Below are positions 43,189-45,275 of a stretch of DNA of 64,000 bases, in pieces (positions within the stretch are counted from its first letter, which is position 1; every line of letters starts with the position of its first letter). Position numbers and translations under genes: made by a program. The notes under the pieces were generated by a model. The model was not told the origin of the DNA. It made no database searches and saw only the letters and a program-made list of their open reading frames with translations. The stretch comes from Gammaproteobacteria bacterium (lineage in GTDB: Bacteria > Pseudomonadota > Gammaproteobacteria > Pseudomonadales > Halieaceae), in contig JANSYN010000012.1 of assembly GCA_024742415.1 (NCBI GenBank), positions 80,494 to 144,493 of the forward strand, given 5' to 3'.

Positions 43189-44280
43189 ATGGCCCGTCGC
43201 AAGCGCAGCTTCAACACATTCAACCTCAGCTTTCTGGACGTGATGTCCTGTGGCTTTGGTGCAGTTGTGCTTGTGTACCTGATCATGAATCACGCCATTG
43301 AAGATGAAAGCCTCAAGCTCAATGAAAACCTGCTCTCAGAGGTCGACATGCTTGAGGTGCAGATGACTGAAGGACAGGCGGGCCTTGTGCAGTTGCGCAA
43401 CACCCTGGCAGATGTCGATATGAAAATCGCCGATGCTCAGGGACGCGCCTCACGCATTGCGCAAGAGCGCGACGAGTGGGAGGCCAGAATTGCCGCAATC
43501 CGGGCGGATGGATATGCACAGAACGATGACATCGAGGCGCTAAAGGCCCAGCTGAACGTACTGGAGACGGAACTGGAGCAGCTGCGTGCCGCCAGCGAAT
43601 CCAATAGCGGCCAGAGCGCCCGGCGCTTCATCGGTGACGGTAACCGACAGTATCTCACCGGACTCAATCTTGGCGGTCGACACATTGCCATACTGGTCGA
43701 CACGTCTTCAAGCATGCTCGCAGAAAAGCTGGTGCAGATTATCCGTTTAAGAAACATGGACGAATCGGTACAGCGCAATGCCCAGAAATGGGTGCGCACG
43801 CTGAACACAGTAGATTGGATAACTTCCCAACTTCCTGTTGCTGCCAAGTACCAACTACTGGCTTTCAATACGCAAGCCTCCTATGCACTGGAGGAGACGC
43901 GTGGCAAGTGGCTGGAAGTCGCTAACCGCAGCCAACTTGACAGCGCCGTTAACAGTCTTCGAAAAAGAATTCCCGCCGGCGGCACCAGCCTGGAGAACGC
44001 TTTCCTGGCACTGCAGGACCTGTCGCCGCCACCGGACAACATATTCCTGTTGACCGACGGGTTGCCAACCCAGGGAACCTCACCGCCAAAAAGCAGCAAA
44101 GTCAGCGGCAGTGACCGGGTCAAGCTGTACCGTGAAGCCGTCAAGCGGCTGCCAACCAATGTGCCAGTGAATATCATTCTCGCGCCCATGGAGGGAGACC
44201 CAATGGCCGCTTCCGAATTCTGGCAACTCGCTACGCTTTCTCGCGGGTCATTGCTTAGCCCTTCCAGGGACTGGCCCTGA
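43189..44280 (+). CDS. vWA-domain protein with ExbD/TolR-like N-terminal TM and coiled coil (gene I)
   Basis: NLSFLDVMSCGFGAVVLVYLIMN, coiled coil, MIDAS HIAILVDTSSSM, FLLTDGLPTQG. Confidence 0.85.
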   Translation: MARRKRSFNTFNLSFLDVMSCGFGAVVLVYLIMNHAIEDESLKLNENLLSEVDMLEVQMTEGQAGLVQLRNTLADVDMKIADAQGRASRIAQERDEWEARIAAIRADGYAQNDDIEALKAQLNVLETELEQLRAASESNSGQSARRFIGDGNRQYLTGLNLGGRHIAILVDTSSSMLAEKLVQIIRLRNMDESVQRNAQKWVRTLNTVDWITSQLPVAAKYQLLAFNTQASYALEETRGKWLEVANRSQLDSAVNSLRKRIPAGGTSLENAFLALQDLSPPPDNIFLLTDGLPTQGTSPPKSSKVSGSDRVKLYREAVKRLPTNVPVNIILAPMEGDPMAASEFWQLATLSRGSLLSPSRDWP

Positions 44281-45275
44281 TGGCTCGCCGCCGCGCACGC
44301 GCGCCGGAAGAGTTCTCGCTGTCGTTTCTGGACGTCATATGCTGCGGCTTCGGCGCAGTGATTCTTTTGCTGATGATTACCAAGACTGTTGAGCCGCAAA
44401 TTATAGAAGCCTCCACCGTCAACCTGGAGGGCAGGCTCGCGGCACTGCAAGAACAGGTATTTAGCATTCGGGGCGAGTCGCGCATTCTCAATCGCGACCT
44501 GAACGCAAAGCAAGAGCAGTTGTCAGAGTACGACGAGCGCATAGCGATTCTGCGCGGGGAATTGGCCGCAGCCAGGAGCCGTCACGACGACACCCTGGTG
44601 GCAACGAGCAGCAACGCTGTCATTACCGCCGAGCTGGCCGATGCCAAGCAAAGCCTCACTCTGGAAATGGAGAGGCTTCTCGGCCAGCAGTACCGCGCAA
44701 AAAATCAGATGATTGGTGGCATACCGGTAGACAGCGAATACATCATTTTCATCATTGACACCTCTGGCTCAATGCGCAGTGCCTGGCCTCGCGTGCTGCA
44801 AGAAATCGAAGCGACGTTGAGTATTTATCCAGAAGTGAAAGGTATACAGGTCATGAATGACATGGGTAATTATCTTTTCAGTCGCTATCGCGGGCGCTGG
44901 ATTCCTGATTCGCCCAGTCGACGCAAACTCATCCTGCAAAATCTCGCCGGATGGCACGTATTCAGTAATTCCAGCCCGGTAGAGGGGATCACCTCCGCGA
45001 TCAGTACGTTTTACGAGCCCGGCAAGAAAATCAGCCTGTACGTTTTTGGCGATGAATTCACCGGCAGCTCGATCGCACAGGTCATCGACCGCGTGGACGC
45101 CATCAACCGTGAAGATGCCAACGGGAACCGGCTTGTACGCATACACGCCGTGGGGTTTCCCATTGTGTTTCTGGCCTCAAACCAACAGCAAACCGGCATA
45201 CGCTTTGCCACACTGATGCGCGAGCTGACCTATCGCAATGGAGGCACGTTTGTTGCGCTGGATAACATTCGCTAG
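44280..45275 (+). CDS. vWA-domain protein with ExbD/TolR-like N-terminal TM and coiled coil (gene J)
   Basis: SLSFLDVICCGFGAVILLLMITK, coiled coil, MIDAS YIIFIIDTSGSM; TGATG overlap with gene I stop. Confidence 0.85.
   Translation: MARRRARAPEEFSLSFLDVICCGFGAVILLLMITKTVEPQIIEASTVNLEGRLAALQEQVFSIRGESRILNRDLNAKQEQLSEYDERIAILRGELAAARSRHDDTLVATSSNAVITAELADAKQSLTLEMERLLGQQYRAKNQMIGGIPVDSEYIIFIIDTSGSMRSAWPRVLQEIEATLSIYPEVKGIQVMNDMGNYLFSRYRGRWIPDSPSRRKLILQNLAGWHVFSNSSPVEGITSAISTFYEPGKKISLYVFGDEFTGSSIAQVIDRVDAINREDANGNRLVRIHAVGFPIVFLASNQQQTGIRFATLMRELTYRNGGTFVALDNIR

What the first reader, a model, noticed from the sequence alone, without database searches (positions are those of the whole stretch)
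43189..45275. Two adjacent vWA proteins may act as heterodimeric ExbD/TolR/MotB-like stator partners
Both begin with positively charged residues followed by a near-identical TM: NLSFLDVMSCGFGAVVLVYLI and SLSFLDVICCGFGAVILLLMI. The Asp just before the hydrophobic stretch sits where ExbD (PFIDVMLVLLIIF), TolR (PLLDVLLVLLLIF) and MotB (ADFMTAMMAFFLV) carry their essential proton-carrying Asp. Each continues into a coiled coil and a vWA domain with an intact MIDAS (DTSSSM / DTSGSM). The ExbB-like gene lies two genes upstream. No separate ExbD gene is visible, so these two could replace it, with vWA instead of a peptidoglycan- or TonB-binding domain.
Basis: partly seen in the sequence, partly recalled or inferred. 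Interest (0 to 1): 0.88.

Follow-up and report, generated by a model that had tools for sequence, protein, structure and literature searches.

The report
Paired vWA stalks of proton motor

Summary
Both proteins (43189-44280, 44280-45275) have basic N-termini, one transmembrane (TM) helix with an Asp, a coiled coil and a vWA domain with MIDAS residues. The Asp is invariant: 106/106 and 110/110 homologues. The TM is each protein's most conserved segment. The ExbB-like gene (41106-41903) keeps both channel threonines (97/97). No ExbD/TolR gene lies in the operon, while the genome's other six MotA/ExbB-type genes have canonical partners. In 291 gammaproteobacterial genomes, exactly the same 19 carry this ExbB-like orthologue and the vWA genes, including one where they are unlinked. 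The two vWA proteins form reciprocally monophyletic clades, fitting an obligate heteropair.

The functional reading is supported but not new: PMC12204202 (2025) proposed this TM-helix/vWA heteropair with AF3 models. The TM has no detectable sequence homology to ExbD, so it works like ExbD without being shown to be one.

Additions: a conserved lipoprotein-TPR-PEGA/SUMF1-motor-vWA-vWA cassette; an intervening degenerate Hsp70-fold protein with an FHA-like end; and a sister group (5/291 genomes) whose related motor gene co-occurs with one TM-Asp protein having interchangeable periplasmic domains, linked to FHA/PP2C/kinase genes. No direct interaction or proton conduction was shown.

The parts
35921..37132 (+). 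g1: predicted outer-membrane lipoprotein (403 aa), first gene of the conserved cassette
   Evidence: lipobox LATGC by eye; no Pfam/NCBIfam family; found in 81 of 110 loci at this place, including Mariprofundus
37170..38720 (+). g2: inner-membrane-anchored TPR protein
   Evidence: TPR Pfam hits; TM near N-terminus; 86 of 110 loci
38722..40794 (+). g3: inner-membrane-anchored protein with PEGA repeats and a SUMF1/FGE-like domain; SUMF1 part resembles GldK/PorK below that model's cut-off
   Evidence: PEGA 164 bits, FGE-sulfatase 140 bits; TIGR03525 GldK 103.8 bits, cut-off 350; 89 of 110 loci
41106..41903 (+). g4: MotA/TolQ/ExbB-type motor subunit, presumed pentamer; T189 and T222 are the channel threonines; an extra N-terminal TM is present
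   Evidence: PF01618 54.3 bits; T189, T222, P182 97/97; aligned to the genome's own ExbB/TolQ/MotA paralogues
41903..43183 (+). g5: cytoplasmic protein with a degenerate Hsp70 nucleotide-binding-domain fold and an FHA-like C-terminal beta domain; accessory, absent from some lineages
   Evidence: AF2 pLDDT 93; Foldseek to DnaK NBD, TM-score 0.71 on target; FHA-like tail only E=0.017; absent where g4 and g6 abut
43189..44280 (+). g6: vWA1, TM stalk with Asp17, coiled coil, vWA domain; proposed transpore partner A
43219..43287 (+). TM helix of vWA1 (residues 11-33) with invariant F15-L16-D17 and G22, G24, L28; near-invariant C21
   Evidence: D17 106/106; most conserved segment
44280..45275 (+). 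g7: vWA2, TM stalk with Asp18, coiled coil, vWA domain; proposed transpore partner B
44313..44381 (+). TM helix of vWA2 (residues 12-34) with invariant F16, D18, A26; near-invariant L17, C22, G23, G25
   Evidence: D18 110/110
45238..45930 (+). g8: predicted lipoprotein, downstream accessory
   Evidence: lipobox LLSAC by eye; 81 of 110 loci
45927..46595 (+). g9: predicted lipoprotein, downstream accessory
   Evidence: lipobox LLSAC by eye; 73 of 110 loci
46598..48043 (+). g10: M48 metalloprotease lipoprotein, BepA-like but below the BepA equivalog cut-off
   Evidence: PF01435 133 bits; M48_BAM_BepA 136 bits, cut-off 570; 71 of 110 loci

Best explanation
The ExbB-like protein (41106-41903) and the two vWA proteins form one inner-membrane, ion-driven motor of the 5:2 kind. 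The ExbB-like subunits form the ring. One TM helix from each vWA protein passes through its pore, so the moving axle is a heterodimer. Ions pass by alternate protonation of Asp17 (vWA1) and Asp18 (vWA2) against the ring threonines T189/T222, which turns or reorients the axle. The coiled coils carry this motion to the paired vWA heads in the periplasm. The heads act, through metal-dependent (MIDAS) contacts, on envelope partners encoded beside them: the TPR protein, the PEGA/SUMF1 protein and outer-membrane lipoproteins. Shown here: sequence anatomy, residue conservation, conserved gene order, co-occurrence, absence of ExbD. Inferred: assembly, stoichiometry, ion flow, rotation, and what the heads pull on.
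For: Asp invariant in both. TM helices conserved at 0.84 mean top-residue frequency against 0.46-0.53 for coiled coils and 0.62-0.74 for vWA, unlike a plain anchor. Ring threonines invariant and aligned to those of the genome's ExbB/TolQ/MotA. Six other MotA/ExbB genes of this genome sit beside canonical ExbD or MotB; only this one lacks such a partner. Same 19 of 291 genomes for ExbB-like orthologue (E<=1e-99) and vWA genes, with one genome (G227) where they lie on different contigs. Reciprocally monophyletic vWA1 and vWA2, support 100, both full-length in 107 of 110 loci. In a sister group the related motor gene co-occurs with a protein sharing the TM and Asp while the periplasmic domain differs (TM profiles match at 95.6-96.0%). 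Published AF3 models of the same architecture place the Asp pair inside the Thr ring (PMC12204202).
Against: No physical interaction, structure of the complex or ion flow was tested here. The TM has no detectable sequence homology to ExbD. Co-occurrence mostly follows from operon linkage and shared ancestry; only G227 is clearly unlinked. The vWA2 sample was partly collected with an SFLD pattern, although 29 loci found by whole-protein similarity give 29/29.
Confidence: 0.78

Rival explanations
1. The vWA proteins are TolA/TonB-like force transducers that bind the outside of the ring, while an ExbD from elsewhere in the genome supplies the axle.
For: PMC12204202 describes another vWA family of this kind (SHLS motif, next to tolR-like genes). 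Three canonical ExbD genes exist in the genome.
Against: No SHLS motif in either TM; an invariant Asp inside the TM is expected for an axle, not for an edge-binding helix. The ExbD genes all sit beside their own ExbB genes on other contigs, and none lies in the conserved cassette; ExbD-like ORFs occur only near the far ends of 5 of 110 loci.
Confidence: 0.1
2. Each vWA protein forms its own homodimeric axle, giving two alternative motors, rather than one heterodimer.
For: The sister group appears to use a single TM-Asp gene, presumably as a homodimer. Homodimers are the rule in ExbD, TolR and MotB (established knowledge).
Against: The two genes are always found as an adjacent pair with deep, reciprocally monophyletic clades and no locus shown to hold only one, apart from contig-end cases.
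Confidence: 0.1
3. The Asp belongs to a signal or anchor with a structural role only (for example a lipobox Cys right after it), unrelated to ion flow.
For: A Cys follows the Asp closely (VMSC, VICC) and is nearly invariant.
Against: The Cys is at the start, not the end, of the hydrophobic stretch and is replaced by Ser in 7 of 106 and 8 of 110 sequences, while the Asp never changes. The TM as a whole is conserved.
Confidence: 0.02

Closest known systems
TPH-vWA heteropair next to a tolQ-like gene (PMC12204202, Mol Biol Evol 2025, Fig. 4c,d)
   Same: TM-tethered vWA proteins in heterologous pairs, tightly linked to a tolQ-like gene, no tolR/exbD, conserved TM Asp facing a Thr ring in AF3 models, Proteobacteria
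   Different: The published description, as far as read, does not mention the lipoprotein/TPR/PEGA-SUMF1 cassette, the Hsp70-fold/FHA gene or the FHA/PP2C/kinase sister group. Direct sequence identity with their Idiomarina seed was not tested here.
ExbB-ExbD, TolQ-TolR, MotA-MotB 5:2 motors
   Same: MotA/TolQ/ExbB subunit with the two channel threonines; single-TM partner with an Asp at the start of the helix and a periplasmic domain
   Different: Partner TM not detectably homologous (own signature F-L-D-x3-C-G-x-G-A-x2-L); coiled coil and vWA instead of the ExbD fold or OmpA-like domain; two different partner genes; ring protein has an extra N-terminal TM compared with ExbB
GldL-GldM motor with GldK (type 9 secretion/gliding)
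   Same: Motor operon that also encodes a SUMF1/FGE-like protein and periplasm-spanning partners
   Different: No GldM-like protein; the SUMF1 domain here is fused to PEGA repeats and inner-membrane anchored; GldK score far below the model cut-off
ZorA-ZorB of Zorya defence
   Same: MotA-like subunit with Asp-bearing single-TM partner
   Different: Only chance-level PADLOC matches of g4 to ZorA (E about 0.01) and none of the vWA proteins to ZorB
BatA/BatB vWA membrane proteins
   Same: Bacterial membrane-linked vWA domains; BatB 3ibs is among the fold matches of vWA2
   Different: No MotA/ExbB partner described for them; different TM arrangement

Membership tests
ExbD/TolR (PF02472) | match to the family profile | tested here: not met
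   No PF02472 hit in Pfam scan of either protein; whole-genome PF02472 search finds three other genes only
ExbD/TolR (PF02472) | TM helix homologous to ExbD TM | tested here: not met
   hhalign TM profiles against ExbD 1.8% and 2.4%, controls 0.3-2.9%
ExbD/TolR (PF02472) | invariant Asp at start of the single TM | tested here: met
   106/106 and 110/110
MotA/TolQ/ExbB ring subunit (for g4) | PF01618 match above cut-off | tested here: met
   54.3 bits, cut-off 22.9
MotA/TolQ/ExbB ring subunit (for g4) | two channel threonines in the last two TMs | tested here: met
   T189 and T222 97/97, aligned to own-genome paralogues
TPH-vWA motor family of PMC12204202 | TM-tethered vWA genes in heterologous pairs beside tolQ-like, no tolR/exbD | tested here: met
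TPH-vWA motor family of PMC12204202 | conserved TM Asp and Thr ring | tested here: met
TPH-vWA motor family of PMC12204202 | sequence orthology with the Idiomarina seed proteins | not tested
   seed sequence not identified in the collections used
TPH-vWA motor family of PMC12204202 | TM helices inside the ring pore in a complex model | not testable with these tools
   only single-chain prediction available
vWA transducers with SHLS motif (other family of PMC12204202) | SHLS motif in TM and adjacent tolR-like genes | tested here: not met
   no SHLS in aligned TMs; no ExbD/TolR in cassette
vWA domain | vWA fold with MIDAS residues | tested here: met
   PF13519 for vWA1; fold match for vWA2; MIDAS residues
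Zorya ZorAB | ZorA and ZorB profile matches | tested here: not met

The most novel reading that the evidence does not exclude
A wider class of ion-driven motors uses an axle helix of its own kind (signature S-x-L-D with small residues G/A behind it), not detectably related to ExbD/TolR/MotB. The axle carries interchangeable periplasmic heads: an obligate vWA heteropair here; a single vWA or another beta domain in the sister group. The motor is controlled from the cytoplasm through FHA, PP2C phosphatase and Ser/Thr kinase proteins.
Probability: 0.35. Interest if true: 0.75.

Novelty: new member of a known kind. Interest (0 to 1): 0.52.

Why it matters
Ion-driven 5:2 motors power flagella, TonB uptake, Tol-Pal, gliding and phage defence. 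A natural motor whose axle is an obligate heterodimer with adhesion-type heads would be a clean system for asking whether the two axle helices have separate jobs, because each Asp can be changed alone. It would also add an uncharacterised, widespread envelope machine to environmental Gammaproteobacteria and Zetaproteobacteria, with relatives named from Alphaproteobacteria and Desulforhopalus.

Tried and rejected
Homology of the TM to ExbD by profile comparison: no better than control TM segments. NCBIfam and PADLOC: no family for the vWA proteins. PDB sequence search with the ExbB-like protein: no hit at E<=1; with vWA2: mostly coiled-coil noise. Lipobox reading of the TM Cys: rejected because Cys is replaced by Ser in some homologues and lies at the wrong end. 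A vWA-like DSSVSM frame next to the unlinked motor gene in L213 looks like an antisense artefact. Coevolution between ring and axle was not attempted because the key residues do not vary and the sample is shallow. Literature searches found only PMC12204202 on this arrangement; preprints are not held.

Full report
Observation. The TM strings share 14 of 21 residues. The ExbB-like gene is two genes upstream (PF01618 54.3 bits). The organism looks like a Halieaceae gammaproteobacterium by its nearest named relatives; the assembly has 4.14 Mb in 27 contigs.

Conservation. The Asp is invariant in vWA1 (106/106 with a residue there) and vWA2 (110/110). The 80 named loci were found partly with an SFLD pattern on vWA2, which biases that count. 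The 29 loci found by whole-protein similarity or profile give 28/28 and 29/29, and vWA1 was never used for finding. The TM is the most conserved segment of each protein (0.84 mean top-residue frequency; coiled coils 0.46 and 0.53; vWA 0.62 and 0.74). In the ExbB-like protein T189 and T222, which align with the channel threonines of the genome's own ExbB, TolQ and MotA, are 97/97. That those threonines surround the Asp in known motors is established knowledge, also stated in PMC12204202.

Partner logic. The genome has seven MotA/ExbB genes. Three ExbD and two MotB genes lie beside the other six: single exbB-exbD pairs on C26 and C18, two exbB-like genes with one exbD on C8, two motA-motB pairs on C25. 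Only the window's gene has no canonical partner. In 110 loci an ExbD-like ORF appears only in five, near the far end of the locus. In 291 gammaproteobacterial genomes the orthologue of the ExbB-like gene (E<=1e-99) and the vWA genes occur in exactly the same 19 genomes. Most of this is operon linkage and the genomes are related, so the naive probability of about 1e-29 overstates it. In G227, however, the ExbB-like gene is on another contig with unrelated neighbours, and in G095 it lies on the other side of the vWA pair.

Heteropair. vWA1 and vWA2 form two reciprocally monophyletic groups, 49 and 49 sequences, support 100 (FastTree). 107 of the 110 loci hold both full-length genes. This fits an obligate pair since an ancient duplication; heterodimerisation is inferred.

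Cassette. The order lipoprotein, TPR, PEGA-SUMF1, ExbB-like, (g5), vWA1, vWA2 recurs across Gammaproteobacteria and in a distant group identified as Mariprofundus by protein names. g5 gives a confident model (pLDDT 93) with an Hsp70 nucleotide-binding-domain fold (DnaK NBD, TM-score 0.71 on the target). By eye it lacks the glycine-rich nucleotide loops, so a scaffold rather than an ATPase is likely (inference). Its C-terminus is FHA-like only weakly (E=0.017). g5 is missing where g4 and vWA1 abut, for example in Mariprofundus, so it is an accessory.

Sister group. Four genomes outside the 19 had a weaker relative of the ExbB-like gene, and a sister profile added a fifth. The same five genomes, and no others above background, carry a protein beginning NREINIF(S/N)xSALDLFAS with the same TM Asp. 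Its TM profile matches those of vWA1 and vWA2 at 95.6% and 96.0% with the Asp aligned. Its periplasmic part is a vWA domain in two genomes and something else in two others, where Pfam finds no vWA. In the two cases on longer contigs the motor gene and the TM-Asp gene are in one gene neighbourhood, with FHA and PP2C genes; a Ser/Thr kinase and a trypsin-FHA protease gene lie beside another TM-Asp gene. So the TM with its Asp stays with the motor gene while the head changes, which is what an axle helix predicts. Only five genomes were seen, and in two of them the genes are on separate contigs of fragmented assemblies.

Kinship with ExbD. No PF02472 match and no TM profile match above control. 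The likeness to ExbD is in position and chemistry, not in detectable sequence descent. It works like an ExbD; it is not shown to be one.

Literature. PMC12204202 (Mol Biol Evol 2025, msaf138) already proposes a family of TM-tethered vWA proteins in heterologous pairs beside tolQ-like genes, without tolR/exbD, whose helices carry the conserved Asp inside a Thr ring in AF3 models. All features that could be checked here match. Their Idiomarina seed was not compared by sequence. No experimental test was found.

Verdict. Observation confirmed; interpretation supported as function, already published as a prediction, and strengthened here. Function in the cell is unknown; the neighbours point to the envelope.

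Noticed in passing
window 41903-43183: Protein between the ExbB-like gene and vWA1 has a degenerate Hsp70 nucleotide-binding-domain fold (pLDDT 93) with a weakly FHA-like C-terminal beta domain; no Pfam or NCBIfam family matches.
   Followed up: partly
L209, L210, L211, L212, L215, L216 (genomes G038, G287, G094, G035) and G228: Sister motor group: MotA-like gene with FHA, PP2C, Ser/Thr kinase and trypsin-FHA genes and a single TM-Asp protein (SALDLFAS) whose periplasmic domain is vWA or another domain.
   Followed up: partly
window 38722-40794: PEGA-repeat protein with a SUMF1/FGE-like domain resembling GldK/PorK of the type 9 secretion motor (103.8 bits, below the 350-bit cut-off), encoded beside a motor gene.
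   Followed up: no
window residues Cys21 of vWA1 and Cys22 of vWA2: Nearly invariant Cys at the same TM position in both paralogues, followed by small residues (GxGA): a possible tight helix pair and natural crosslink site.
   Followed up: no
window 41106-41903, residues 64-68: Nearly invariant acidic motif (D-x-E-Q-E) just before the second TM of the ExbB-like protein; D64 94/97, E66 and E68 97/97. Role unknown.
   Followed up: no
window 46598-48043: BepA-like M48 protease lipoprotein and two further lipoproteins follow the cassette in most gammaproteobacterial loci but not in Mariprofundus.
   Followed up: no
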